A stretch of 64,000 bases of DNA from Alistipes sp. (GTDB lineage: Bacteria > Bacteroidota > Bacteroidia > Bacteroidales > Rikenellaceae). The translations under genes were made by a program, and so were the position numbers. Under the pieces are notes generated by a model that saw nothing but the letters and a program-made list of their open reading frames with translations, was not told the DNA's origin and searched no databases. Shown in pieces: positions 34,407-58,279 of the stretch (position 1 is its first letter; every line of letters starts with the position of its first letter). The stretch is taken from NCBI GenBank assembly GCA_017408825.1, contig JAFQTX010000025.1, positions 55,060 through 119,059 on the forward strand. Direction: 5' to 3'.

Positions 34407-36047
34407 CTACCCGAGTAGTATGCGGGCTTGCTTGCGGGCGGCCTCGGTGATCTCGCTACCCGACAACATCTTGGCAATCTCGTCGGTGCGTTCACGCTCA
34501 CTCAGTCGTTGAATGTTGGTGCGCCCCTCGCTCTTATACACAACAAAGTGTGCTCCACGCTTCGAGGCGACCTGTGGAAGGTGTGTAATGTCGATAACCT
34601 GCATACCTTGGGCCATATTCGAGATAATATCACCCATGGCGTCGGCAATACGTCCTGACACGCCGGTGTCGATCTCGTCAAACACCACTGTGGGTAGCTT
34701 GATCTTCTCAACAAGCAATGATTTGAGTGCTAACATCATACGTGAAAGCTCGCCACCCGATGCTATGCGCTCGATGGGCGCTGGGCGTGTTGTGCGGTTT
34801 GCCGAGAATAGGTATGCTACGTTGTCACATCCCGAGGGCGTGAAACCTTCGGTTGGTGTAATATCGACCATAAACTGTGCATCCTCGATACCGAGTTGCT
34901 GGAGCGTAGATACGATATGTTGCTCGAATCCGCCGCATACTCTCTTGCGTGATGACGTAAGCTCGGCAGCGACCTTTTGGCACTCCGACTCGGCACTCTC
35001 GATGCGCTCACGCATCTGGCGTAGCTCGGTGTCGCTATTATCTATTGTTGCGAGGCGTGCCTCAAACTCCTGAGCTTTGGCCAGAAGGTCGTCGTACGAC
35101 TCGGCACGATGTTTCATCTCGAGCGAGTAAATAGTGTTGAGCCTGTCGCTGAGTTTCTGCAGGCGTTCAGGGTCGGCATCTATGCGCTCAGCCTCGTCGG
35201 CAGCTGTTGATGATATATCCTTGAGTTCGGCAACAACGCTCTTTAGGCGCTCTGCAAGTGACACTCCCTCGGGGTAGCGCTCGCCAATAGACTCAAACTC
35301 ACGCTCGGAGCGTGTGAGGGTCACAAGTGCGCCAAGCTCCTCATCATCAAGCGTATTGCGAAGCATCGTTAGAGCCTCGCCGATACGGTCGGCACTCTCG
35401 AGTGTTGCCAACTTCTGCTCGGTCTCGGCCTGCTCGCCCTCCTTAAGGTTTGCGGCACGTAGCTCCTCGACAATGTGTCGTAGCCACTCCTCATCACGGC
35501 GTGCTACGCTTAGAGCCTCCTCCATCTTACGGTACTCAGCACGCAGGGTGTTGAGCTCGGTAAGTAGGGTGGTGTAGCGCTCCTTAAGCTCTCCATTGGC
35601 GGCCAAGGTGTCGAGTGTCGTGGTGCGGAAATCCTCCGATGATAGGATAAGGTTTTGGTGCTGCGAGTGAATATCAATGAGGTGTGAGCCAAGCTCCTTG
35701 AGTGTGCTTAGCTGCACAGGCATATCTCCCACAAACGAACGACTCTTTCCCGCTGGGGTTATTATGCGTCGAATGGTTATCTCGCTCTCGTAGTCGAGGT
35801 CATTATCTTCGAAAATCTGCTCCAGACCGTATCCCTCTATTGCGAAGGTCGCCTCGATAACGCAGTTTTTCGTAATATCCTTAGTCGCCTGACCCTCGTT
35901 CTTAGCGCCGAGCAGCATACCGAGTGCGCCAAGTAGAATAGACTTGCCTGCGCCTGTCTCACCAGTTATGATGTTCAGATGCTCGTTCCACTCCACGTGT
36001 AGCGACTCGATGAGTGCATAGTTTTCGATGGTAAGGCTCTTTAGCAT
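34407..36047 (-). CDS. recN: DNA repair protein RecN
   Basis: A 546-residue SMC-like ATPase that gathers broken DNA ends in recombinational repair. N-terminal Walker A GETGAGKSILLGAL, a central coiled coil (about 155-370), and C-terminal signature ASGGELSRMMLAL with Walker B PTVVFDEIDTGVSG; the final LPQVA block is standard. It is last in the bamD-rpoZ-coaBC-recN operon, 6 nt after coaBC. Confidence 0.96.
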   Translation of the reverse strand: MLKSLTIENYALIESLHVEWNEHLNIITGETGAGKSILLGALGMLLGAKNEGQATKDITKNCVIEATFAIEGYGLEQIFEDNDLDYESEITIRRIITPAGKSRSFVGDMPVQLSTLKELGSHLIDIHSQHQNLILSSEDFRTTTLDTLAANGELKERYTTLLTELNTLRAEYRKMEEALSVARRDEEWLRHIVEELRAANLKEGEQAETEQKLATLESADRIGEALTMLRNTLDDEELGALVTLTRSEREFESIGERYPEGVSLAERLKSVVAELKDISSTAADEAERIDADPERLQKLSDRLNTIYSLEMKHRAESYDDLLAKAQEFEARLATIDNSDTELRQMRERIESAESECQKVAAELTSSRKRVCGGFEQHIVSTLQQLGIEDAQFMVDITPTEGFTPSGCDNVAYLFSANRTTRPAPIERIASGGELSRMMLALKSLLVEKIKLPTVVFDEIDTGVSGRIADAMGDIISNMAQGMQVIDITHLPQVASKRGAHFVVYKSEGRTNIQRLSERERTDEIAKMLSGSEITEAARKQARILLG

Positions 36048-36053
36048 AGTGCG

Positions 36054-37250
36054 TTAGCGTGTTATCTTCTCGATGTTATCCACGATGATGCTTGCCACCT
36101 CGTGTTTCGACATTAGTGGGTACTCCTCACGTGCTGTGCGGCTGATTATGGTTATCTTGTTAGTGTCGCCACCAAAGCCTGCACCCTTGTCACGTAGTGA
36201 GTTGAGCACCACGAAGTCGAGGTTTTTGCGCTCGAGCTTACCCTCGGCATTGGCCTCCTCGTTGTCGGTCTCGAGGGCGAAGCCTACAAGTGTACGATCA
36301 CCCTTGTTTGCGCCCAGCTCCTTGGCAATATCCTTTGTGCGACGCAGCTCTATGCGCATATCATCGTCCGACTTCTTGAGCTTGTGGTCGGCCACGCACA
36401 CTGGTGTGTAGTCGGCCACTGCGGCACACATCACTGCGCCATCGGCCTCATCCCACTCTTTTACCGTAGCGTTGTACATATCTTCTGCCGAGAGTGTGTC
36501 GATACGCTCTACGCCATATGGTGTAGGCAGCGCTGTGCGACCTGTGATGAGCTTCACCTCAGCGCCACGACGTGCCAGCTCCTCGGCTATTGCATAGCCC
36601 ATCTTTCCCGTAGAGTGGTTTGTGATGTATCGCACAGGGTCGATAGGCTCTATTGTGGCTCCTGCTGTTACTATGTAGCGCTTGCCGCATAGCGTTGTCT
36701 TGCTCTCGGCAGCAAATATCGCCTTTACCTGCTCGACAATCTCCTCGGGCTCGGCCATACGCCCCTTGCCTACAAGACCACTTGCCAGCTCACCAGCTTC
36801 TGGCTCGATGATTGCCACGCCACGCTCCGAGAGTGTGCGTAGGTTCTGCTGTGTGGTTATGTGGGCATACATATCGAGGTCCATTGCAGGAGCTACTGCC
36901 ACCTTCGAGCGTGCCGAGAGGTATGTTGTCAGCAGTAGATTATCTGCAATGCCCGTTGTCATCTTGGCAATGGTGTTTGCCGTTGCGGGAGCTATGAGCA
37001 GCATATCGGCCCACTCGCCGAGCGATACGTGAGAGTTCCACTCGCCGTTCTCAGGGTTGAAGAACTCTACAAGTATAGGGTGCTTCGAGAGTGTTGCCAT
37101 CGTCAGTGGCGTGATAAACTGCTTTGCCAGAGGAGTCATTATTACACGCACCTCTGCACCCTCCTTGACTAAAAGACGGCACAGCATAGCTGCCTTGTAA
37201 GCTGCTATGCTGCCTGTTATGCCGAGTATAATATGTTTTCCGTTGAGCAT
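36054..37250 (-). CDS. coaBC: Phosphopantothenoylcysteine synthetase/decarboxylase
   Basis: A 398-residue bifunctional coenzyme A enzyme. The CoaC half (about 1-180) is a flavodoxin-like decarboxylase: GITGSIAAYKA, and APAMDLDMY near the catalytic region, which matches the usual P-A-M-N/D-x-x-M block. The CoaB half (about 185-398) ligates cysteine to phosphopantothenate: VTAGATIEPIDPVRYITN, STGKMGYAIAEEL and the CTP-region KLKKSD. It follows rpoZ by 37 nt. Confidence 0.95.
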   Translation of the reverse strand: MLNGKHIILGITGSIAAYKAAMLCRLLVKEGAEVRVIMTPLAKQFITPLTMATLSKHPILVEFFNPENGEWNSHVSLGEWADMLLIAPATANTIAKMTTGIADNLLLTTYLSARSKVAVAPAMDLDMYAHITTQQNLRTLSERGVAIIEPEAGELASGLVGKGRMAEPEEIVEQVKAIFAAESKTTLCGKRYIVTAGATIEPIDPVRYITNHSTGKMGYAIAEELARRGAEVKLITGRTALPTPYGVERIDTLSAEDMYNATVKEWDEADGAVMCAAVADYTPVCVADHKLKKSDDDMRIELRRTKDIAKELGANKGDRTLVGFALETDNEEANAEGKLERKNLDFVVLNSLRDKGAGFGGDTNKITIISRTAREEYPLMSKHEVASIIVDNIEKITR

Positions 37251-37287
37251 ACTACTCTGGTTTTGCTATCCTCGGGATAGCGTGTGA

Positions 37288-37608
37288 CTATTTCTCGTTG
37301 CCGTGGCGGAAGCCTACCTCACCATCGAGGAACTCCTCGGTAGCGATGATTGCTGGCTTAGGTAGACGCTCGTAGTAGCGTGAGATCTCAATCTGCTCAC
37401 GGTTTTCGAAAGTCTCCTCTACAGAGTTGTCGTTAGGTGTTGAGAAGTCAGCAAGCTTTCGGTTGATCTCAGCCTTGAGCTCAGTAGCAATCTGGTTTGC
37501 ACGACGAGCGATGATGTTGATGCTCTCGTAGATGTTGCCAGTAGGCTCATCAAGATCCACGAGCTTACGTGTGATTGTGTTGCTGGGAATGTTCTTCTTA
37601 ATCTCCAT
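37288..37608 (-). CDS. rpoZ: RNA polymerase omega subunit, Bacteroidota type
   Basis: A 106-residue Rpb6/omega-like protein. The core TGNIYESINIIARRANQIA resembles the helix of omega that clamps beta-prime; downstream EQIEISRYYERLPKPAI is typical of the Bacteroidota form, which differs strongly from E. coli omega. Position between bamD and coaBC is conserved in the phylum and supports the call. It helps assemble and stabilise RNA polymerase. Confidence 0.85.
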   Translation of the reverse strand: MEIKKNIPSNTITRKLVDLDEPTGNIYESINIIARRANQIATELKAEINRKLADFSTPNDNSVEETFENREQIEISRYYERLPKPAIIATEEFLDGEVGFRHGNEK

Positions 37609-37635
37609 AGCTTATATATATTATTTATTACTCTT

Positions 37636-38451
37636 CTACTTTGTTGTCTCACGGTTTTTGTCGAGGAAGTCACGACAGTTGTCGGCGATGTTTCCGAGCT
37701 CCTTGCAGCGCTTCGACTCGGGATATTCGGCGATGAACGAGTAGTAGCTGTCGAGTGCTGCGAGGTATCTGTCTGTCTGTTTCGACTCTACCGAGTTTGC
37801 TGCGAGGCGATACGCTGCCACTGCCGTGTAGTACATTATATCCTCCTTGCGTGGGGTGTCGGGATACTTCTTCAGTGCGTTTTTGAATGCCACTATTGCC
37901 GACTTGTAGCGGCCAATCTTGAAGTATGTGTAGGCATTCTGGTAGCTCTTCTCCATCAGTCTTTTTGTGAGCGTGTCGAGCATCTCCTCGAACTCATCTA
38001 CCTTGTCGGAGTTTGGGTATCTCGATATAAACTCTGTGATGGCTATTATGGCCTGTGTTGTCACCGTCTGGTCACGCTGAGGCTCTGGCGACATATAGAA
38101 GTGACATAGGGCAAACATACCCTCGGCATCCTCGATAAATCCGCTACGGCCAAACTTGCGTCGGAAGTCGTCGAGCATTGTTGCGGCCTCATCCCAGCTA
38201 CGCTCTTTGAACTTGCATCGAGCGTTGTAGAACGATAGCGAGTCTTCGCGTGGCGATCCCTGGTATATATGGCGACACGCAGTGAATAGGTCAGATGCCT
38301 GCTTCCACTTACCCTCGCCGTAGAACTTAAGAGCCTGCTCGTAGGCATATTGTGGGTCGTTGGTCTTTAGGGCCTGCTGCACGCCGTCGCATGCCGCCGC
38401 CAATGTTGCCACAGCCACAATAACCACAAAGTATGTTAAAAGACGCTTCAT
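37636..38451 (-). CDS. bamD: Outer membrane assembly lipoprotein BamD
   Basis: A 271-residue lipoprotein with lipobox LAAAC and TPR-type helical repeats (YEQALKFYGEGKWKQASDLF near 35-55, FKIGRYKSAIVAFKNALKKYP near 185). BamD binds the C-terminal beta-signal of outer-membrane proteins and is an essential partner of BamA. I start it at 38451 (MKRLLTYF); an upstream in-frame start would extend through the palindrome in the promoter. First gene of the bamD-rpoZ-coaBC-recN operon. Confidence 0.92.
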   Translation of the reverse strand: MKRLLTYFVVIVAVATLAAACDGVQQALKTNDPQYAYEQALKFYGEGKWKQASDLFTACRHIYQGSPREDSLSFYNARCKFKERSWDEAATMLDDFRRKFGRSGFIEDAEGMFALCHFYMSPEPQRDQTVTTQAIIAITEFISRYPNSDKVDEFEEMLDTLTKRLMEKSYQNAYTYFKIGRYKSAIVAFKNALKKYPDTPRKEDIMYYTAVAAYRLAANSVESKQTDRYLAALDSYYSFIAEYPESKRCKELGNIADNCRDFLDKNRETTK

Positions 38452-38466
38452 TTCGTTTATTGTTGT

Positions 38467-38496
38467 TGCGCTTATGCGCATAAGCGCACAAAGTTA
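38467..38496 (-). promoter_or_regulatory. bamD -7 element abutting a 22-nt perfect palindrome
   Basis: TAACTTTG (minus strand, 38489-38496) is a -7 element. The next 22 nt downstream (38467-38488) are a perfect palindrome with half-site TGCGCTTATGC, covering the expected transcription start. It could be an operator or a 5'-end RNA hairpin. Confidence 0.65.
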
Positions 38497-38553
38497 CATA
38501 TAATTTTTGAATAAACGAACAATGTTGTGGAATTATTATGGATAAATTGTTTT

Positions 38554-38869
38554 AAGGGTATAGCGAGCCTACGGCTCTAAAGGGTTGTTCGTGCCTGTCG
38601 GCACTAAAGGGTAGTTGAAAGGGTAGTTCGCAAGCTTTCAGCTTGCTAAAGGGTAGTTAAAAGGGTTGTTCGCACCTAACGGTGCTAAAGGGTTATTTTT
38701 TCTAACTCTCCCTTTAGCTCGCCAGCGGCGAGCGCACTACTCTTTAGCTTGCTTCAGCAAGCGCTCTACCCTTTAGCCCGCTTCAGCGGGCGCCCAACCC
38801 TTCAGCTCGCTCCGCTTGCGCTCAACTCTTCAGCAGCTCCGCTGCGCTCTACTCTTTACCCCTCTTTTC
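38554..38869. repeat. Hairpin array A
   Basis: Nine short hairpins joined by the linker AAAGGGTAG (or TTG). Plus-orientation half: GAGCC/GGCTC (38565-38577), GTGCC/GGCAC (38591-38604), CAAGC/GCTTG (38631-38645), GCACC/GGTGC (38672-38685). Then a T-run near 38695-38700. Inverted half: GCTCGCC/GGCGAGC (38717-38733), GCTTGC/GCAAGC (38747-38762), GCCCGC/GCGGGC (38776-38791), a degenerate unit near 38804-38823, and GCAGC/GCTGC (38833-38845). The linkers read CTACCCTTTAG in the inverted half and could pair with those on the left. It lies between bamD and the four-helix-bundle gene, overlapping the last codons of the latter. Confidence 0.9.
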
Positions 38870-39400
38870 AACCCTTGCGTGATACATTCGCTCCTTAAAA
38901 CCACCCTCCGACGTGAACTTTTTTGTTAGCGCCTCAATAAGGTTGTATAATAGGTAGTCACACTGCTTTATTAGCACTATTACCATATTTGCCACAGTGA
39001 TGTCGCTACGAGATTGTGCTATGCCGATGAAGTGTTGCGAGTCGGAGTGTTGTCTTCCCATGCGCTGCATCGCTTTGAACTCCTCGGATGATACGCTCCA
39101 TACCTCTCCTCCCTTTACCCTGATATAGTCGTTGTAATCTTCGAGAAGCTCTCTAAGACTTCCTCTTGCTACGTTTAGTAGCATTAGTCCCGAGGCGGTT
39201 GATGTAGCCATGTCTATGCACCCCTCGACGATATTTTGCTTTCCTGAGCGTGCTGCCTGAACCATCTGGTCGTGCGTGCGATCTTTAGGGTCGATATACC
39301 TGCTACAAAATAGATATGTTAGGTCATATACGACCATAGATTTCTTGTAGCAGAGTAGGTCTTTGTAGTTTGTGTTTCTGGGGATTAGACGCTGATCCAT
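38849..39400 (-). CDS. Four-helix-bundle protein (S23/IVP family)
   Basis: A 183-residue protein of the four-helix-bundle family related to proteins coded in 23S rRNA intervening sequences and to the Avd proteins of diversity-generating retroelements. Features: YKDLLCYKKSMVVYDLTYLF, QMVQAARSGKQNIVEGC (a hallmark helix), ARGSLRELLEDYNDY, and a late helix SRSDITVANMVIVLIKQC. No reverse transcriptase or template repeat is nearby, so this is not a retroelement locus. I start it at 39400; a longer frame upstream would be translated out of array B. A -7 element TACTTTTG lies at 39418-39425. The gene is enclosed by arrays A and B. Function unknown, nucleic-acid binding likely. Confidence 0.8.
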   Translation of the reverse strand: MDQRLIPRNTNYKDLLCYKKSMVVYDLTYLFCSRYIDPKDRTHDQMVQAARSGKQNIVEGCIDMATSTASGLMLLNVARGSLRELLEDYNDYIRVKGGEVWSVSSEEFKAMQRMGRQHSDSQHFIGIAQSRSDITVANMVIVLIKQCDYLLYNLIEALTKKFTSEGGFKERMYHARVEKRGKE

Positions 39401-39475
39401 AGAGATTGTTGTTTTTACAAAAGTAGTGAAATAATCTATATGTTGCAAGTGGGGAGGGTAAATTGAGAAAATAAG

Positions 39476-39775
39476 AGGGGTTGTTCGCAAGCTTTCGCTT
39501 GCTAAAGGGTGGTAGAAAGGGTAGTTCGTGCCTGTCGGCACTAAAGGGTAGTTGAAGAGTAGTTCGCACCTAATGGTGCTAAAGTGCTTTTTTTGATTCT
39601 CCCTTTAGCTCGCCGCTGGCGAGCGCACTACTCTTTAGCTTGCTTCAGCAAGCGCTCTACCCTTTAGCCCGCTTCAGCGGGCGCACAACCCTTCAGCAGC
39701 TCCGCTGCGCACAACCCTTTAGAGAGCAGCGCTCTCGCCCAACTCTTTAGCCCGCTTCAGCGGGCGCACAACCCT
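39476..39775. repeat. Hairpin array B
   Basis: Nine hairpins of the same design as array A. Left half: GCAAGC/GCTTGC (39487-39502), GTGCC/GGCAC (39528-39541), GCACC/GGTGC (39566-39579). T7 centre at 39588-39594. Inverted half: GCTCGCC/GGCGAGC (39608-39624), GCTTGC/GCAAGC (39638-39653), GCCCGC/GCGGGC (39667-39682), GCAGC/GCTGC (39696-39708), GAGAGC/GCTCTC (39722-39736), GCCCGC/GCGGGC again (39750-39765). The three innermost right units and the innermost left unit are the same, in the same order, as in arrays A and C. It lies between the four-helix-bundle gene and the terminator of the large lipoprotein gene. Confidence 0.9.
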
Positions 39776-39791
39776 TAACCAACAACACAAT

Positions 39792-39826
39792 AAAAAAAAG
39801 ACACCCGGCCGAAGCCGAGTGCCTTT
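39792..39826 (-). terminator. Strong terminator of the large lipoprotein gene
   Basis: On the minus strand AGGCACTCGGC pairs with GCCGGGTGTCT (one G-T pair) around a tetraloop, followed by eight T. It begins 20 nt after the stop. Confidence 0.9.
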
Positions 39827-39845
39827 GAAAAGTGAAGATAATATA

Positions 39846-42800
39846 TTACTGCAAATAAGTTACAGTTACGCCATCCATACGTACCTGACCGCCAGTCAAA
39901 GAGCTAATTACATACTCATTTGATGAGCCATCAAGTATAACGGTTACCTTCTTAGATGAAACGCTAACAGTACCTGTCAAGCCAGAGTTTTGCAATGCTG
40001 TTGCGTAGCTTGCGCTGTTGCAATCGAAGACAATGGTTGTGATGTTACCAGGAGCGGTAACAGTAACCTTAGAGTTCTTGTAGAAACGTGCAGGAGCTAC
40101 ATAGTCAGCTACATTGCTTGTAGAAGAACCCTTATCATTGGTTACCTTAATATTGTTAGCCTCGAACACCTGCTGTGATGTAGAGAATGCTGTGCGGTTT
40201 TCTTCTGAGAATACAAGCTCTGCCTCGACAGCAGTCTGATCACCTGATGAAGCAGCAGCCTGCGATACTGCGATTGTCTGGTTCAAAGAACCGCAAGTAA
40301 CAGTGATAGTGCCCTCGATAGCCTCATCAGCAGTGTTCTCAAGAGCTGTGATGGTCAAAACGCCATCAGCATAAGCTGCAGAGAACTGAGCGTTGTCAGA
40401 TGTTGTAACAACCTCAGCAGTAGCATTGTAGATAGCCAAGTCAATCTCCTTGTCGCCACCAGCAGCTGTGAACGATGTTGCAGTTGCTTCAAATGACCAG
40501 AAAGCAAGTGTACCAGGAGAAGTAAGACCCAAGAAGCGAGCCGAACCAGCCTGTGCTGAACCATTATAGTCTGCACGTACAGCGCTGATTACGATATCAT
40601 CGCCAAGCTGAGCACCTGAAGCAGCCCAGTACTTGTTAGTAGCACCATCCTCGCTGTAAAGACCATAAACATAGATAGTACCAGTCTCGTCAGTAAGGTC
40701 GAAGTTACCATAATTAGTGTTAGCAACACGGGTGATTGTACCCTTCAAGGTGTAGAATGTGGTGTTATCAACATCAGCTGCCAAGAACTCAGCAACAGTA
40801 GTGTAAGTAGGCTCAACAGCAGGAGCAGCCTCGGTAGTAGCAGTTGCTACACCAGCCTCTGAAGCAGCGAACTTCTCCTCGTCAGCAGGAATAGCTACAA
40901 CATTGAATGTGTACTCTGTCTCGTACTCACCGGTGAATACGTATGAAGTCTCCTCAGTAACTACAGGCATCTCAGTGCCAACAGTGATAGAGTATGCAGC
41001 AGCATTCTCTACGGCCTCCCAAGTAAGAGTTACGGTGTTCTCCTTAGCAACAGCAGTTACAACAGGAGTTGCAAGAGCTGTAGGCTCCTCTGGCTCAACA
41101 ACAGTAGGTGCATAAACGCTCCATACGCCACCACCCTTATCCCAAGTATTCTCAGTTACGGTGTAGAGGTTAGTGCCATCGGTAGGAACCTCAAGGTCAG
41201 CAGTCTGATTCCACTTGTTATCCCAATTGTTGGCAGCAGCACCAGGATTCATACGGCAGAAGATTACGCTCTCAAAGCCATTAGGAACAGTAACAGCGTA
41301 GATGTTAGTCTCGCCCTCAACAAGAGTCATATCAACCCAAGTCTCGCCATTGCCGAAGAAGTAAGCAGCGAAACGAGCATTGGCTTGATTCCAATTAGCG
41401 TTAGGCTGCAAGTAGAGAACAACCTCTGATGGAGTAACTGGCTCAACGTAGTTGTCGAAGAAGAGGTTACCCTCAACTACACCTGCGAGATCCTTAGTCT
41501 GTGTGCCATTACCATCGTTGAATACAACGTTAAGAGTCTTACCAGTAGCTGTTGCTGGAAGCTGGAATACGTAGTAAGTATCGCCATCCAAAACCTCAGT
41601 CTCAGTGAGCTCGCGACCTGGCCAATCAACTGACTCAAGACCAAGATCCTCACCCTCGTTAGCCCAGATATGAGCATAAACCTTTGCCCAATCAGCAACA
41701 TTGTCGAAGTAGAGCTTGTAGGCCTCTGTAACAACAGGAGCAGCATCAGTCTTAACAGTTACATTGAATGGCTGTGAAGCGAGATTGTCGTTAACAGCAA
41801 CAACAGTGAATGTGTACTCAGTCTCGTACTCGCCAGTGAAAGTGTATGAAGTCTCCTCTGTAACTACTGGCATCTCAGTACCACCAATGATAGTATATGA
41901 TGTAGCATCTGCAACAGCATTCCATGTAAGAGTAATTACGTTACCCTCAACGGCTGCCTCTACCTTAGGAGTATCGAGAACCTTACCGAATGAGATAGGA
42001 CCCTCGTAAACGTAGATAGCGTGGCGAACGTCCTTATTCTCAGAGAACTCAAGAACGAGGTCAAGAGTGATCTTGTAGTTATTCTCGATTGACTCAACCT
42101 TCATTGTGCCGCCGATAACCTCAACAGCAGTCAAAGCACGTGTAGTCTCGTTAGCCTGAAGCTCCTCAACAGTGAATGTAAGCTCAGCACCCTCCTCAGC
42201 ATCCTCTGCCAATACATAGTCACCAGCAGTAAGCTTCTGATTCTTAACAGCAGCACCGTTTACAGTCACCTTGAAGTCATTCTCGCCATTAACAACGAAT
42301 GTGTAGTCGCCATCAGCGTTCAACTCACCAGCATTCCATACATTGATCGTAGTAGCGTTGTCATCGCCCCAGCCATATACGAACTCATCCTCAAAGTTAT
42401 CGTCGATCTTGATATCGATGTTAGCCTGAGTAGTAAGCAAGTCACCAATGATAGTGGTGAGGTGGTTACGCTGGATAGGAATCTGAGTGTTGAAATCGTG
42501 TGAGTGGATCTTACGTGTCTTAGAATCATCCTCGTAAACATCCATTGTGAAGTTTACAGTAGTCTGCTCGCCCTCAACTGCCAAGAGGTAGTCAGCGAAG
42601 AGAGTCTGGTTTGTAGTCGCCTTGTCGTAACCATCAGTGTAAGGGGCATCCTTCTGTACGTTGAATTTGAAAGTGCGCTCATCTTCTGTAAGCTCCTCAG
42701 CGTTAAGCTTGCCATTAACGGCGTTGAACGACTTGTAGACCTTCTCAGTGTGGTACTTAACCTCTACATAACCAGGCTTAGCGTAGCCAGCGATGTAGTC

Positions 42801-43433
42801 AAGGTCAGTAGCGATAACACGCAACTTAGCGAATGGACGAGTCAATGTAAGAGGCTCATTAAGACCAGTTGTACTAACCTTAACATTCTTGGTGATGAAG
42901 TAAGCATCACGAGCCTCGTTCATAGCGTCAAAGCCATTAGCATCGCAATTGATAGTGATGTTGCGAAGATCTGTAGTGTCGTAGTACCAGTCGGCGATTG
43001 CGAGCTTGTCAGCAGCCTCAACCTTTGTGTGGTTACCGTCGGCTACGAAGTCTGCAAATATTACGAACTTGTAGGTACGCTCAGGCACAAGACGCAATGC
43101 GAAAGTGGTTGGAGCATACTTGTCCAAGCAGTTCACCAAACGCTCACGGTAGATAGGCTCGCCTGTACCGTCCTCGTTCTCAGCGTACACCTCGAGGATG
43201 TAACGAACGTCATACTTTGCCCAATCGGCATCGTTGAAGAAGTCGATTGCACCAAGAGCACTGCTGCGGCCCACCTGCTGATCGCCATCAAGACCACGGG
43301 TGATACCCATCTCGGGAGCATCAACAGTGAGAACAACGTCTACAAGATCGCTGTTGCTCACACTCTCCACAGCATCATTCTGGCAGGCTACAAAACATAG
43401 CGCCAAAGCCAAAATAGATAAAAGCTTTTTCAT
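39846..43433 (-). CDS. Large multidomain surface lipoprotein with starch-binding-like modules
   Basis: A 1195-residue lipoprotein (lipobox CFVAC, Cys17). Order: a DUF6562-like N-terminal domain (about 25-345, with YAPTTFALRLVPERTYKFV), a linker beta region, an Fn3 domain (488-562), a CBM26-like starch-binding module (570-660: YFDNVADWAKVYAHIW, then WPGRE and VVFNDGNGTQT), a second carbohydrate-module-like domain (670-775), a second Fn3 (788-868), an OB-like domain (875-968), a BACON domain (982-1060) and a beta-rich C-terminal domain. The two Fn3 copies share an almost identical stretch (GTEMPVVTEETSY ... FTGEYETEY), showing recent duplication. Probably binds alpha-glucans at the surface; no SusC/D partners adjoin. 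Enclosed by arrays B and C. Confidence 0.75.
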   Translation of the reverse strand: MKKLLSILALALCFVACQNDAVESVSNSDLVDVVLTVDAPEMGITRGLDGDQQVGRSSALGAIDFFNDADWAKYDVRYILEVYAENEDGTGEPIYRERLVNCLDKYAPTTFALRLVPERTYKFVIFADFVADGNHTKVEAADKLAIADWYYDTTDLRNITINCDANGFDAMNEARDAYFITKNVKVSTTGLNEPLTLTRPFAKLRVIATDLDYIAGYAKPGYVEVKYHTEKVYKSFNAVNGKLNAEELTEDERTFKFNVQKDAPYTDGYDKATTNQTLFADYLLAVEGEQTTVNFTMDVYEDDSKTRKIHSHDFNTQIPIQRNHLTTIIGDLLTTQANIDIKIDDNFEDEFVYGWGDDNATTINVWNAGELNADGDYTFVVNGENDFKVTVNGAAVKNQKLTAGDYVLAEDAEEGAELTFTVEELQANETTRALTAVEVIGGTMKVESIENNYKITLDLVLEFSENKDVRHAIYVYEGPISFGKVLDTPKVEAAVEGNVITLTWNAVADATSYTIIGGTEMPVVTEETSYTFTGEYETEYTFTVVAVNDNLASQPFNVTVKTDAAPVVTEAYKLYFDNVADWAKVYAHIWANEGEDLGLESVDWPGRELTETEVLDGDTYYVFQLPATATGKTLNVVFNDGNGTQTKDLAGVVEGNLFFDNYVEPVTPSEVVLYLQPNANWNQANARFAAYFFGNGETWVDMTLVEGETNIYAVTVPNGFESVIFCRMNPGAAANNWDNKWNQTADLEVPTDGTNLYTVTENTWDKGGGVWSVYAPTVVEPEEPTALATPVVTAVAKENTVTLTWEAVENAAAYSITVGTEMPVVTEETSYVFTGEYETEYTFNVVAIPADEEKFAASEAGVATATTEAAPAVEPTYTTVAEFLAADVDNTTFYTLKGTITRVANTNYGNFDLTDETGTIYVYGLYSEDGATNKYWAASGAQLGDDIVISAVRADYNGSAQAGSARFLGLTSPGTLAFWSFEATATSFTAAGGDKEIDLAIYNATAEVVTTSDNAQFSAAYADGVLTITALENTADEAIEGTITVTCGSLNQTIAVSQAAASSGDQTAVEAELVFSEENRTAFSTSQQVFEANNIKVTNDKGSSTSNVADYVAPARFYKNSKVTVTAPGNITTIVFDCNSASYATALQNSGLTGTVSVSSKKVTVILDGSSNEYVISSLTGGQVRMDGVTVTYLQ

Positions 43434-43655
43434 TTGTGTGTTGTTTAATTAGTTAATAAAATTGTTTGTTTGTATATGTTTTGTTTGTGTTGTCAGCACC
43501 AATTCGCATACAAGCACAACGAGGGCCAAGACACTGCGTCTCTCCCAAGTTTAAGTCATTCACACGTAATGGTTTGATAGTTAGATGCTTATTCGTAAAA
43601 TATCAAGCCTCCTATTTTCATTGCAAAGATAGGAAATTATTCTTGATTTTCCAAA
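43434..43655 (-). promoter_or_regulatory. Promoter and long 5' leader of the large lipoprotein gene
   Basis: TTTG (43652-43655, minus strand), 20 nt, then TATCTTTG (43624-43631) form a good promoter. Transcription would start near 43617, leaving about 185 nt untranslated before 43433. This leader has a GC-rich centre with a small hairpin (AGAC-gcagt-GTCT near 43530) and an AT-rich 3' third. No known riboswitch is recognised. Confidence 0.65.
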
Positions 43656-43735
43656 TAATTTTACGATCATTATAACAAAGTTATAACGTTTGATCGTAAT
43701 ACCACAAAATGTTATAACGAATAGGCGGGGTGGGG

Positions 43736-44122
43736 AGTAGTTCGTGCCTGTCGGCACTAAAGGGTGGTTGAAGGGTTGTTCGCAAGCTTTCGCTTGCTAA
43801 AGGGTAGAGCGAGCCTACGGCTCTAAAGGGTAGTTCGTGCCTGTCGGCACTAAAGGGTAGTTTGTGCCTGTCGGCACTAAAGGGTGGTTGGAGGGTAGTT
43901 CGCACCTAACGGTGCTAAAGGGTTATTTTTTTTCTAAGTCTCCCTTTAGCTCGCTAACGGCGAGCGCACTACTCTTTAGCTTGCTTCAGCAAGCGCTCTA
44001 CCCTTTAGCCCGCTTCGGCGGGCGCTCTCCCCTTTAGAGAGCAAAGCTCTCGCACAACCCTTCAGCAGCTCCGCTGCGCTCTACCCTTCAGAGAGCAGCG
44101 CTCTCGCTCAACCCTTTAGAGC
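43736..44122. repeat. Hairpin array C
   Basis: The longest array, 12 hairpins. Left half: GTGCC/GGCAC (43744-43757), GCAAGC/GCTTGC (43782-43797), GAGCC/GGCTC (43811-43823), GTGCC/GGCAC twice (43837-43850, 43864-43877), GCACC/GGTGC (43902-43915). T8 centre at 43926-43933. Inverted half: GCTCGCT/GGCGAGC with a T-G pair (43949-43965), GCTTGC/GCAAGC (43979-43994), GCCCGC/GCGGGC (44008-44023), GAGAGC/GCTCTC (44037-44051), GCAGC/GCTGC (44065-44077), GAGAGC/GCTCTC (44091-44105). It breaks off in a C9 tract (44122-44130). Lies between the large lipoprotein promoter and the rplI terminator. Confidence 0.9.
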
Positions 44123-44133
44123 CCCCCCCCTCA

Positions 44134-44172
44134 AAAAAACAAATGGAAGATACTGTGCGTACCTTCCATTTG
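44134..44172 (-). terminator. Terminator of rpsF-rpsR-rplI
   Basis: CAAATGGAAG (44140-44149) pairs with CTTCCATTTG (44163-44172); on the minus strand it is followed by a T7 run, 29 nt after the rplI stop. Just beyond is the G9 tract bordering array C. Confidence 0.85.
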
Positions 44173-44201
44173 TGATCTTAAGTCGCCTGAGCGACAGATA
44201 T

Positions 44202-44639
44202 TTACTCAGCAACAACCGAGAACTTGATAGTAGCCTTAACCTCGCGGTGAAGCTTAGCTACAGCCTCGAACTCGCCAAGAGTCTTAACTGAATCAACAGT
44301 GATGTTCTTGCGATCAACCTCGATGCCCTTCTCTGTAAGAGCAGCAGCGATGTCGGCAGCAGTCACAGCACCGAAAATCTTCTCCTCCTCAGCCTTAGCT
44401 GTGATAGTGAGGTGAAGGTTAGCGATTGTCTCAGCCAATGCCTGAGCGTCAGCAAGGATCTTAGCGTCCTTGTGAGCACGCTGGCGAAGGTTCTCAGCAA
44501 GTACCTTCTTTGCAGAAGCGGTAGCTGCCTTAGCGAAACCCTGAGGAATCAAGTAGTTGTTGGCATAGCCAGGGCGAACGTTTACGATGTCGTTTGCGTA
44601 GCCCAAGTTCTCTACGTCTTTGATAAGAATTACTTCCAT
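44202..44639 (-). CDS. rplI: 50S ribosomal protein L9
   Basis: A 145-residue L9 with the N-terminal rRNA-binding domain (EVILIKDVENLGYANDIVNV, GYANNYLIPQGFA), the long connecting helix (about 40-75) and a C-terminal domain with KIFGAVTAADIAAAL. Third gene of rpsF-rpsR-rplI, 18 nt after rpsR. Confidence 0.96.
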   Translation of the reverse strand: MEVILIKDVENLGYANDIVNVRPGYANNYLIPQGFAKAATASAKKVLAENLRQRAHKDAKILADAQALAETIANLHLTITAKAEEEKIFGAVTAADIAAALTEKGIEVDRKNITVDSVKTLGEFEAVAKLHREVKATIKFSVVAE

Positions 44640-44657
44640 AGTCTTTCCTCCTCTTTA

Positions 44658-44939
44658 TTATTTCATACAATCGGTTACGAATGGAAGGATTGCGAGGTGA
44701 CGAGCACGCTTAACTGCCTGAGCAACCTTCTTCTGGAACTTCTGAGAAGTACCAGTGAGACGGCGTGGCAAAATCTTACCCTGCTCGTTAAGGAACTTCT
44801 TCAAGAACTCACCGTCCTTATAATCTACGTACTTGATACCGAGCTTCTTAAAGCGGCAGTACTTCTTCTTCTTTACGTCTACTGATACTGGGTTGAGATA
44901 GCGGATCTCTGATGCACCCTGCTGTGTATTCTCTGCCAT
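44658..44939 (-). CDS. rpsR: 30S ribosomal protein S18
   Basis: A 93-residue S18 with [15 protein letters not shown] and the conserved [19 protein letters not shown] followed by [11 protein letters not shown]. It pairs with S6 on the 30S platform. Separated from rpsF by only 2 nt. Confidence 0.96.
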
Positions 44940-44941
44940 GA

Positions 44942-45289
44942 TTACTCCTCCTGTGATTTGTTAGCAAGCTTAGCACGACGCTTCTGAGAGTACTCAACAG
45001 CGAACTTGTCCTGCTTGAATGTTAGGAAACGAATTACACGCTCATCACGACGATACTGTGTCTCAAGCGTGTTGATGATTGAGCCCTCACCGGTGAACTC
45101 TACGAGGAAGTAGAAACCGGTAGTCTTCTTCTGAATAGGATAAGCGAGCTTCTTGAGGCCCCAGTTCTCCACATTCACAATCTGACCGCCGTTCTCGGTG
45201 ATTACGCCCTGGAATTTGTCAGCAACCTCCTGCACCTGTGCATCAGAGAGCACGGGAGTGACAATGAAAACGGTTTCGTAATTGTTCAT
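44942..45289 (-). CDS. rpsF: 30S ribosomal protein S6
   Basis: A 115-residue S6: [18 protein letters not shown] at the start, [20 protein letters not shown] in blocks, and the strand [14 protein letters not shown]. First gene of the S6-S18-L9 operon, with a consensus promoter 38 nt upstream. Confidence 0.96.
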
Positions 45290-45327
45290 AATGTTTAATT
45301 AATTAAAGTTTTGTGCATAAAGCGTCG

Positions 45328-45357
45328 CAAAGGTAGTAATAATTTTTTATTTTGCAA
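45328..45357 (-). promoter_or_regulatory. Promoter of rpsF operon
   Basis: TTG (45355-45357, minus strand), 19 nt, then TACCTTTG (45328-45335). Confidence 0.7.
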
Positions 45358-45393
45358 TACCCCGATGCTAATTTTTTGATACTTAATAGACAA

Positions 45394-45424
45394 AGAGGTG
45401 TTCGTTTTATCGCAAACACCCCTA
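45394..45424 (-). terminator. Terminator of rubredoxin gene
   Basis: AGGGGTGTTTG and CGAACACCTCT (minus strand) form a stem with an 8-nt loop, followed by TTGTCTATT. Confidence 0.65.
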
Positions 45425-45431
45425 CGTAGGA

Positions 45432-45590
45432 TTACTCCTCCTCGAATACCTCCTTGCCTAAGCCGCAAAGAGGACACGCCCAATCCTCGGGCAGAGCCTC
45501 GAACGGTGTCCCCGCTGCGATACCATTCTCGGGATCGCCCTTCTCAGGATCGTAGACATAGCTACATGCCGTACATACATACTTTTTCAT
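45432..45590 (-). CDS. Rubredoxin
   Basis: A 52-residue rubredoxin, a one-iron electron carrier. Both iron-binding pairs are present: [16 protein letters not shown] at the N-terminus and [16 protein letters not shown] at the end, with the conserved [11 protein letters not shown] between. Full length for the family. In anaerobic Bacteroidales rubredoxins feed rubrerythrin-type peroxide reduction and related oxygen defence. It lies between secG and the rpsF promoter, and its size makes it easy to miss. Confidence 0.95.
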
Positions 45591-45654
45591 AGATTATTAT
45601 ATTATATAGGTGTGCATATATGGTAGCAACTATTGTGCCTATGATAAACAAGAA

Positions 45655-45681
45655 GGGTGCCGACTATTTAGTCCGACACCC
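45655..45681 (-). terminator. Terminator after secG
   Basis: GGGTG-C-CGACTA with TAGTC-CG-ACACCC forms a stem of about 10 bp, 24 nt after the secG stop, then TTCTTGTTT on the minus strand. Confidence 0.65.
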
Positions 45682-45705
45682 TCAGGTTGTTTGGTTGTTG
45701 ATTGC

Positions 45706-46116
45706 CTACTTCGCTGGCTCGCTCTTAGCTGCATCCTCAGCAGGAGTCTCGCTCTTAGCCTCGCCCTCAGCAGGAACAGTTACAGTAGTCTCAACGGCAG
45801 CACCCTCAGCAGGAACCTCAAGGTTGATAGAGGTAGTAGGCTGATCCTTAGATGCCTCGATAGGGTTGTAGCCCTCGGCCTCCTGTGCAGCCTCGCGCTC
45901 TGGCATAGCGGTTACCGAAAGGAGTGTAAACAATACGATGGCTGCAACCATCGCCCATGTGAACTTCTCAAGAAAGTCTGAGGTCTGGCGAACACCCATA
46001 GTCTGGTTAGCAGCACCAAAGTTAGCAGCCATGCCGCTCTTAGGAGCCTGAACCAACACTGCAAGTATCAATAGGACACTTGCGATAGCAATCATGATAA
46101 TGCAAAATGTATACAT
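45706..46116 (-). CDS. secG: Preprotein translocase subunit SecG
   Basis: A 136-residue SecG. Two membrane helices (IIMIAIASVLLILAVLVQ and FTWAMVAAIVLFTLLSV) flank the conserved loop PKSGMAANFGAANQTMG. The Pro/Ala/Glu-rich acidic tail of some 60 residues (EGAAVETTVTVPAEGEAKSE) is a lineage-specific extension on the far side of the membrane. SecG assists SecYE during protein export. Last gene of the operon HU-CCDC81, sigma-54 activator, lptE, TPR-like and secG. Confidence 0.93.
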   Translation of the reverse strand: MYTFCIIMIAIASVLLILAVLVQAPKSGMAANFGAANQTMGVRQTSDFLEKFTWAMVAAIVLFTLLSVTAMPEREAAQEAEGYNPIEASKDQPTTSINLEVPAEGAAVETTVTVPAEGEAKSETPAEDAAKSEPAK

Positions 46117-56236: not shown

Positions 56237-58279
56237 TTACTCCTTTATGCGCTTAATCTGTTTCTTGTAAACCTCCCAGCCTTCAGCTTTCTTGTATAGA
56301 TTTATCGACTCCTTAGGCACGTAGATTACTATCTCTTCCCCTATGCCGAGCGTGCTTATCTGTGGCGGTGTTGTTGCTAAGCAGTTGATAACAAGCGACG
56401 ATGGACACTCCTTGAAGGCATCTTTACCAATGGTGGTAACATCCTGCGGGATGGTGATACGGGTGATGTTACACTCTACAAATGCGCCCTCGCCAATTGT
56501 TGTTAGCTTATCGCTTAACTTAATGTCCCTTAGGTTTGTGCAGCCCTCAAATGTGGAGGCTTTGATTGTTGTTACGCCATTGGGAATAGCTACCTCAGTT
56601 AATGAGCTGCAATCCTCAAAGGCCTTTGTACCTATGGTCGTTGTGCTATCGGGTATCGTAATACCTTGCAGCGAGCAACATTCCATAAATGCACTACTAT
56701 CAATCGTTGTTATCTTGTTACTTAGCTCAATGCTCTTGAGGTTTGTGCAGCCCTTGAATGTAGAGGCTTTGATTGTTGTTACGCCATTGGGGATAGCTAT
56801 CTGAGTTAATGCGCTACAGCCCATAAATGCACGACTACCAATCGTTGTTAGGCTTTGTGGCAGTGTCAATGTGACAAGTTCGGTGCAACCTCTAAATGTG
56901 TCATCGGGAATTGTAGTTACCCCATCGGGAATATCGTATGATAACAGCCCCTTAGTGATAACATCTATGAGCACTCCATCTTTGACTATGCAGCTGCCAT
57001 CTGCTGAAGCATATTGGCCATTGAATTTTCTCAGATTTGTGCATTTGTCAAATGCTCCTATCTCAATATTCTCAACATCATTGCCGATAGTTACCTCGCT
57101 GATATTAATTCCCTGGGTAATATCCTTTGTTATTCGCTTGCAATTTAGGGTTAGCCTGCCCGAGAAACCTGTCAATGCACCATAGGCCAACTTGCTCACT
57201 TTCTCGCCTATGGTTATCTCCTCTATGTTGCTTAGGTCAATCCAATTCGCCTGGAAATAGTTAGTATCTACTGTCAAGTGCTTGAGATTGAGTAGTTGAG
57301 ACATCTCTTTTGAATTAACACTGGTGATATTATTTGCCAACATCAATTTCGTAACCATTTCTGGAGATAAACCCTCAGGTAACCCATTTGACTGATTCAC
57401 ATATTCTAATGTAATCTCCTTAATATCACAGCCAATGAACACCCCATCATCAATATTAGTTATGCTATTGGTAATAGTATACGATGTAAGTCCTGCGGGT
57501 GCAAATGCGAACAATGCGCCATCCTGAATTAGACATCTACTATTCTCCGAGGCATACTTTCCGCTGAAAGATTCAAGATTTGTACAACCATCGAATGCAC
57601 TACCACTAATTTCAGTTACGCTATCGGGGATAGTGATATTTGTTAGGCTTGTGCAACCATAGAATGCATTACCTCCAATCTTAGTTACGCTATTGGGAAT
57701 AGTATACGATGTAAGGCCGGCTGGCGCAAATGCTATTAATTCACCATCCACTATTAGACATCTACCATCTGAAGATGCATACTTCCCTTTGAATGATTTC
57801 AGGATTGTGCAACCATGGAATGCCTCACGTCCAATCACAGTTACGCTATCGGGAATAGTGATATTTGTTAGGCTTATGCACTTACTGAATGCTCTATACC
57901 CAATCTCAGTTACGCTATCGGGGATAGTGATATTTGTCAGGCTTGTGCAACCCTCGAATGCACCCCATCTAATCTTAGTTAATCTATTAGGCAAAGTAAT
58001 TGTTTCGATATGATTGCCTATAATTTTAAAGCCAAATTCCACATACCACTCCCAAATGCCATAATCCTCTATTGCTCTATTAGCACGTACTACTCCCTTG
58101 CCATTGGCATATGTATGTGATATAATTTTGAAATTTACGTTATCATTTCCTTCATAAAGTTCTGCTTTCTTCCCATCCGTCGTAGTATACCAAATCTCGT
58201 TATCGGGTGGGGTTTGAGCCAGGGATGATAGTGTGGTAAAAATGGTGCAGATAACAAGTGCGAATATCTTACGTGTCAT
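56237..58279 (-). CDS. BspA-like leucine-rich repeat protein
   Basis: A 680-residue secreted protein with a signal peptide (MTRKIFALVICTIFTTLSSLAQ). After an N-terminal region it has about 20 Treponema-type LRR_5 repeats with the pattern ITIPDSVTEIGYRAFSKC and variants (LTTIGSRAFMGCSALTQ), broken by a divergent section at about 290-400. Such repeats bind host proteins or other bacteria in Tannerella and Treponema; here that is only analogy. No T9SS sorting domain or lipobox is evident, the C-terminus being a Lys-rich tail. The gene is noticeably more AT-rich than its neighbours, which can hint at transfer or repeat-driven drift. The M16 operon follows after 43 nt. Confidence 0.88.
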   Translation of the reverse strand: MTRKIFALVICTIFTTLSSLAQTPPDNEIWYTTTDGKKAELYEGNDNVNFKIISHTYANGKGVVRANRAIEDYGIWEWYVEFGFKIIGNHIETITLPNRLTKIRWGAFEGCTSLTNITIPDSVTEIGYRAFSKCISLTNITIPDSVTVIGREAFHGCTILKSFKGKYASSDGRCLIVDGELIAFAPAGLTSYTIPNSVTKIGGNAFYGCTSLTNITIPDSVTEISGSAFDGCTNLESFSGKYASENSRCLIQDGALFAFAPAGLTSYTITNSITNIDDGVFIGCDIKEITLEYVNQSNGLPEGLSPEMVTKLMLANNITSVNSKEMSQLLNLKHLTVDTNYFQANWIDLSNIEEITIGEKVSKLAYGALTGFSGRLTLNCKRITKDITQGINISEVTIGNDVENIEIGAFDKCTNLRKFNGQYASADGSCIVKDGVLIDVITKGLLSYDIPDGVTTIPDDTFRGCTELVTLTLPQSLTTIGSRAFMGCSALTQIAIPNGVTTIKASTFKGCTNLKSIELSNKITTIDSSAFMECCSLQGITIPDSTTTIGTKAFEDCSSLTEVAIPNGVTTIKASTFEGCTNLRDIKLSDKLTTIGEGAFVECNITRITIPQDVTTIGKDAFKECPSSLVINCLATTPPQISTLGIGEEIVIYVPKESINLYKKAEGWEVYKKQIKRIKE

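What the first reader, a model, noticed from the sequence alone, without database searches (positions are those of the whole stretch)
38554..44122. Three inverted arrays of hairpins with changing but always paired stems
Arrays A (38554-38869), B (39476-39775) and C (43736-44122) contain about 30 hairpins of 13-17 nt, joined by a near-constant linker, AAAGGGTAG. At least nine stem types occur (GTGCC, GCACC, GAGCC, GCAAGC, GCTCGCC, GCTTGC, GCCCGC, GCAGC, GAGAGC), and in all but one unit both arms change together, so pairing is kept while sequence is not: strong covariation. Each array reverses orientation at a T-run, so linkers on the two sides can pair with each other while each hairpin folds locally. 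The units around the centre (GCACC, T-run, GCTCGCC, GCTTGC, GCCCGC) are identical in order in all three; only the outer units differ. Distinct stems would stop neighbouring units from mispairing. I know no described repeat family with this design; it may be a mobile or recombining structural element, an insulator/terminator, or a non-coding RNA.
Basis: partly seen in the sequence, partly recalled or inferred. Interest (0 to 1): 0.88.

Follow-up and report, generated by a model that had tools for sequence, protein, structure and literature searches.

The report
Self-folding repeat arrays paired with protein
The three hairpin arrays are copies of a scattered, self-folding DNA repeat that goes with a small neighbouring gene of the ribosomal-RNA "intervening sequence" protein family; many related genes carry their own, differently spelled arrays, which suggests a widespread two-part mobile element whose mechanism is still unproven.

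Summary
Arrays A, B and C hold 30 hairpins (29 perfect, 1 imperfect). Of 81 distinct inserts from five genomes, 74 pair fully over the outer 5 bp, against a mean of 24 and at most 37 when 3' arms are dealt out anew. A and B bracket a four-helix-bundle gene (38849-39400, minus strand) with the 4helix_suffix domain TIGR04258. Its predicted fold clearly matches the 23S-rRNA intervening-sequence (IVS/S23) proteins 2gsc and 2rld and, less clearly, DGR Avd. The window's genome has about 27 places with this array type; at two, the der leader and site C, relatives lack it. Relatives of the protein sit between arrays of the same palindromic design but other words. The two flanks of one gene match each other better than those of other genes (0 of 10,000 permutations), and array word follows protein identity. 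Most plain IVS-family genes tested (14 of 17) are likewise bracketed by inverted repeat arms. Best reading: a REP-like, IVS-related selfish element with a non-enzymatic cognate protein. Binding by the protein and the way of moving are inferred; some genomes do not fit.

The parts
38554..38869 (.). Array A: 4 hairpins on the plus arm (38565-38685), centre about 38686-38716, 5 hairpins on the minus arm (38717-38845, one imperfect); lies at the 3' end of the four-helix gene
38849..39400 (-). Four-helix-bundle suffix-domain protein, 183 aa; last codons overlap the outer edge of array A; dN/dS about 0.1 against three orthologues
   Evidence: (TIGR04258 69.1 bits, cut-off 40; TIGR02436 25.6 bits, cut-off 24; PF05635 26.3 bits, below its cut-off of 33.8)
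39476..39775 (.). Array B: 3 hairpins plus arm (39487-39579), 6 hairpins minus arm (39608-39765); lies upstream of the four-helix gene
43736..44122 (.). Array C: 6 hairpins plus arm (43744-43915), 6 hairpins minus arm (43949-44105); gene-less copy, absent from the orthologous interval of relative G235

Best explanation
The arrays are the non-coding part of a dispersed two-part genetic element. Part one is a palindromic array: short repeats on one arm, their reverse complements on the other, here with an extra hairpin in most repeats. Part two is a gene for an IVS/S23-type four-helix-bundle protein that lies between two such arrays. SHOWN: gene and arrays occur together, their words go together, gene-less arrays are dispersed in the genome, and two sites lack the array in relatives. 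INFERRED: the protein, probably a pentamer as in its solved relative, binds the folded array (as RNA or single-stranded DNA) many times over. INFERRED: the complex, with host enzymes, lets arrays be copied into intergenic sites, much as RAYT proteins are thought to do for REPs, but without a catalytic domain of its own. Selection or copying keeps the two arms, and the two flanks of a gene, matched while the words drift. The 23S rRNA intervening sequence would be the special case that landed in rRNA.
Against: No binding, transcription or movement was seen; no precise insertion boundary or clear target duplication. Over all 65 loci 41 have an array-like flank on at least one side and 23 on both; of 22 loci from other families of the order only 6 pass. 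Co-inheritance of gene and flanks would by itself give a correlation of word and protein, and the loci are related to each other. G232 has 21 strong matches to AAAGGGTAG-type arrays, but the only relative found there (61% identical, in two frames) is flanked by another word. Six of 18 genomes with at least three TTAGGGA hits have no suffix-type protein; five of these have a plain four-helix gene, but with other words in the arms seen, and G201 has none. Absence from relatives could in principle be loss. Only 16 of 41 genus genomes are at least 90% complete with at most 5% contamination.
Confidence: 0.62

Rival explanations
1. Host-serving binding sites: the four-helix protein is a nucleoid or RNA-chaperone protein and the arrays are its sites in DNA or in untranslated RNA regions; spread is slow and tolerated because useful.
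For: Purifying selection on the protein; the 13 own arrays examined are intergenic, some in leaders or at 3' ends.
Against: Patchy presence: protein relatives in 15 of 41 genomes of the genus; two sites not conserved between relatives; several unrelated array words in one genome.
Confidence: 0.17
2. The arrays are MITE-like repeats moved by an unrelated transposase (such as an IS), and the four-helix gene is a passenger between two copies.
For: BrickBuilt of Porphyromonas gingivalis is such a repeat-bearing MITE with IS5-like ends (PMC4596501, passages read). The best fold matches are no enzymes.
Against: Many different array words flank members of one protein family, and words follow protein identity. 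No Y1 transposase: 0 of 41 genomes. Other transposase families and constant terminal repeats were not searched for.
Confidence: 0.12
3. Bidirectional terminators or insulators.
For: At least 4 T at 17 of 19 array centres; strong hairpins; several arrays follow gene ends closely.
Against: The array in the leader of der lies between the start codon and the promoter-like motif TAnCTTTG, which is at most 110 nt from the start in 26 of the 29 loci that have it (30 examined) and 409 nt away here. Arrays occur between tandem, convergent and divergent genes.
Confidence: 0.06
4. Minisatellites made by slippage and fold-back copying, with no functional tie to the gene.
For: Period-9 repeats dominate (25 of 59 repeat-rich flanks), as slippage could give.
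Against: Array-like flanks are commoner beside these genes than in controls, and flank words match across the gene.
Confidence: 0.03

Closest known systems
REP sequences with RAYT (REPtrons)
   Same: Gene bracketed by palindromic repeats; dispersed gene-less copies; several repeat families in one genome with repeat-specific genes (PMC3733652, passages read).
   Different: No Y1/HUH transposase: 0 of 41 genomes of the genus. The protein is a four-helix bundle. The repeat is a long two-armed array, not a 20-40 bp palindrome. Some linkers end in GTAG but vary.
23S rRNA intervening sequences (IVS) with S23 protein
   Same: A protein of the same fold (2gsc) encoded between inverted repeats that form a stem; the Coxiella case is called selfish (PMC4990558, start of abstract and passages).
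   Different: Here the elements are intergenic, use tandem repeat words, differ in word from gene to gene, and have many gene-less copies.
Avd of diversity-generating retroelements
   Different: Reverse transcriptase shows no tie: 5 of 15 protein-bearing genomes vs 11 of 26 others.
BrickBuilt MITE of Porphyromonas gingivalis
   Same: Dispersed Bacteroidales element holding tandem repeats (PMC4596501, passages).
   Different: 23-nt direct repeats and IS5-like terminal repeats; 'four helix' does not occur in its main text.

Membership tests
REP/RAYT (REPtron) | Y1 (HUH) tyrosine transposase gene | tested here: not met
   PF01797: 0 of 41 genus genomes; rings in 5 of 14 control genomes
REP/RAYT (REPtron) | Gene flanked by the repeat that is dispersed in the genome | tested here: met
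   with a four-helix gene in place of RAYT
REP/RAYT (REPtron) | GTAG tag next to the palindrome | tested here: inconclusive
   Linkers GTAG, GTTG or GTGG in this class; several other classes lack it by eye
23S rRNA IVS | Protein of the IVS/S23 family | tested here: met
23S rRNA IVS | Inserted in a 23S rRNA gene | tested here: not met
   Window arrays and gene lie between protein genes; no Rfam match in 36000-46000
23S rRNA IVS | Inverted repeats bracketing the gene | tested here: met
   Plain genes: 14 of 17 loci share at least 5 8-mers between up flank and reverse-complement down flank; in the window each flank is itself a palindromic array
Diversity-generating retroelement | Reverse transcriptase with the Avd-like gene | tested here: not met
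   PF00078 in only 5 of 15 protein-bearing genomes, and in 11 of 26 others; nearness to the four-helix gene was not examined
MITE | Target site duplication | tested here: inconclusive
   Leaders at the empty der site do not align closely enough; a possible 7-nt repeat GCTGCAA seen by eye at L187/L188
MITE | Terminal repeats matching a resident IS | not tested
   No IS survey was made
Known structured RNA | Match to an Rfam family | tested here: not met
   Window 36000-46000: 0 at gathering score; 38400-39850: one sub-threshold sX6 hit (39777-39850, E 0.22) outside the arrays

The most novel reading that the evidence does not exclude
The whole IVS/S23 four-helix family outside rRNA is the protein half of a large class of selfish palindromic-array elements in Bacteroidota and beyond. 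Each protein has its own array word, the arrays spread in trans without any encoded enzyme, and known 23S rRNA intervening sequences are the rRNA-resident branch of this class.
Probability: 0.45. Interest if true: 0.92.

Novelty: new variant of a known kind. Interest (0 to 1): 0.8.

Why it matters
What S23/IVS proteins do and where rRNA intervening sequences come from is stated to be unclear more than 25 years after their discovery (PMC4990558 passages). A protein family tied to its own dispersed array offers matched pairs that can be tested directly for binding and spread. It could also account for many of the short-word repeats scattered between genes of gut Bacteroidota, and give a mobile system that lacks an enzyme of its own.

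Tried and rejected
CRISPR was set aside from the anatomy alone; Rfam RNAs and Y1-driven REPs by search. Reverse-transcriptase dependence: no association. A PDB search with the single protein found nothing up to E 0.1; the profile found 2gsc at E 0.0023. hhalign between suffix and plain alignments was not significant, so homology rests on TIGR02436, the profile hit and the fold. Phages: no relative; plasmid records: one, a Prevotella nigrescens replicon with a palindromic array seen only on the 3' side. My first array test (inverted 7-mers only) called 21 of 65 loci; direct repeats were then added, giving 41 of 65. My first unit parser failed on a regular expression and was corrected. The query reaches about 60 bases into the gene. 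Precise insertion boundaries could not be read. In one search (der leaders against flanks of four-helix genes of the same genome) 20 of 30 genomes could be used: matched 9.15 vs 3.54 shared 9-mers, 1 of 10,000 permutations reached it, driven mostly by G000, G204 and G226; for most of the 20 the best match was another genome's flanks. Rows dropped: 2 of 77 loci without a tblastn hit and 10 duplicates before the 65; 5 proteins by length or stops before the tree; 11 of 60 for lack of repeated words before the correlation; 2 of 65 without long enough flanks; 2 overlapping repeats of L022 before the 19 centres. No centre from G232 entered. Nothing like this was found in print (open-licence PMC papers only; listings, with passages of eight papers opened).

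Full report
1. Observation. The three arrays are at the stated places. A parser that takes the hairpin ending at each linker, read by eye, gives 9, 9 and 12 hairpins in A, B and C, 29 with perfect stems and 1 imperfect. To test pairing without selecting for it, inserts were picked by their linkers from arrays of the window's genome and four related genomes: 81 distinct inserts, 74 fully paired over the outer 5 bp; shuffled 3' arms give mean 23.9, maximum 37 of 1,000. Pair position 3 shows all four Watson-Crick types in numbers, position 4 too (one of them once). DNA and RNA folds bring linkers of the two arms together with hairpins standing off. At least 4 T stand at the centre in 17 of 19 distinct arrays aligned.

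3. Dispersal and gain. The window's genome has 76 matches to array A, which I merged by eye into about 27 places. The 13 sites examined lie between genes (site limits set by eye): three overlap the end of a reading frame by 10-21 nt, and B overlaps only the upstream extension of the four-helix frame; settings are tandem, convergent and divergent. At der the array lies between the TAnCTTTG motif and the start codon. That motif is at most 110 nt from the start in 26 of the 29 loci that have it (30 examined) and 409 nt away in the window's genome. G235, G219 and G214 lack the array there. In the central alignment, A is nearest to a gene-less copy on contig C16 (90%). The two gene-flanking arrays of one genome are 85% (window), 88% (G235) and 87% (L035) alike, against at most 82% to arrays of the other genomes.

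4. A family-wide rule. Relatives of the protein in the genus (15 of 41 genomes) and elsewhere are often bracketed by arrays with other words but the same plan: TTAGGGAGA, AAGACCATT, CCCATTTAT, ATGGGTTTCG, CTTAAGGTTA and others, some with hairpins between the repeats. The commonest period is 9 (25 of 59 repeat-rich flanks; 10 in 6). By a fixed test, at least one flank is array-like in 22 of 24 own-plus-genus loci, 13 of 19 genome-contig loci and 6 of 22 loci of other families in the order; single-stretch controls give 2 of 17, 5 of 30 (der leaders, some holding real arrays) and 5 of 90. Counted by flank it is 64 of 128 against 2 of 17 (Fisher p 0.003). The two flanks of a gene share words: 34.7 vs 5.2. 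Array words track protein identity and clades, as they would if gene and flanks travel together. A TTAGGGA pattern occurs at least three times in 18 of 41 genomes; 12 of those 18 have a suffix-type protein against 3 of the other 23. Of the six exceptions five have a plain four-helix gene, against 7 of the 20 genomes with neither; but the arms of those plain genes show other words, so they do not explain the TTAGGGA arrays.

5. Plain four-helix genes. Seventeen loci of TIGR02436 genes without the suffix, some of them orthologues, mostly show the simplest form: repeat words upstream and their reverse complement downstream, with the gene in the loop. Up and reverse-complement down flanks share 13.9 8-mers against 1.8 for mismatched pairs, 0 of 10,000 permutations; 14 of 17 share at least 5, and L184, L185 and L187 share 0-2. 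Four loci upstream of a gene that I read as lpxB from its first residues (L190, L191, L193, L207) hold three different words with matching arms; their proteins are 45-79% identical. So both arms change together while complementarity stays, which is the window's hairpin finding on a larger scale.

6. Mechanism. The parallel to REP-RAYT is in anatomy (PMC3733652, passages); the parallel to IVS is in protein and inverted repeats (PMC4990558, passages, which also reports the older proposal that the ORF serves mobility and the pentameric structure of a relative). No Y1 transposase and no tie to reverse transcriptase were found. Two distant members end in a topoisomerase-type DNA-binding zinc ribbon, which favours nucleic-acid binding. 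I infer that the protein binds the folded array and that copying uses host functions.

7. Limits. Only 16 of 41 genus genomes are at least 90% complete with at most 5% contamination. G232, G201 and the five genomes above do not fit a strict one-protein-one-array rule. Outside the family most loci fail the array test, though some show short palindromes by eye. Nothing here shows movement, transcription or binding.

Noticed in passing
window 57451-57981: Tandem repeats of about 225 and 69 bp, possibly within a repeat-rich protein gene.
   Followed up: no
window 39846-43433: A 1195-aa protein with DUF6562, CBM26, fn3 and BACON matches between arrays B and C.
   Followed up: partly
L009 and L026, near 1600-1800 and 1250-1500: Another repeat (GGATGGGACATA... 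/ ...TATGTCCCATCCAGCCC) beside short AAAGGGTAG-type stretches.
   Followed up: no
L048, L049, L069, L074: Distant suffix-type proteins (Paceibacterota and others) with a C-terminal CxxC-rich tail; PF01396 zinc ribbon scanned and found for L048 and L049 only.
   Followed up: partly
L115 and L116: A frame-broken TTAGGGA-class gene region is 98.8% identical over 1371 nt in G208 and G235, while their der regions are 86% identical: recent transfer or contamination.
   Followed up: partly
L187 and L188, both ends of the element: A 7-nt repeat GCTGCAA, seen by eye, on both sides of the plain four-helix element, possibly a target duplication.
   Followed up: no
G232 contigs C6 and C42: Two der genes with equal scores in one genome, which hints at a mixed assembly.
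   Followed up: no
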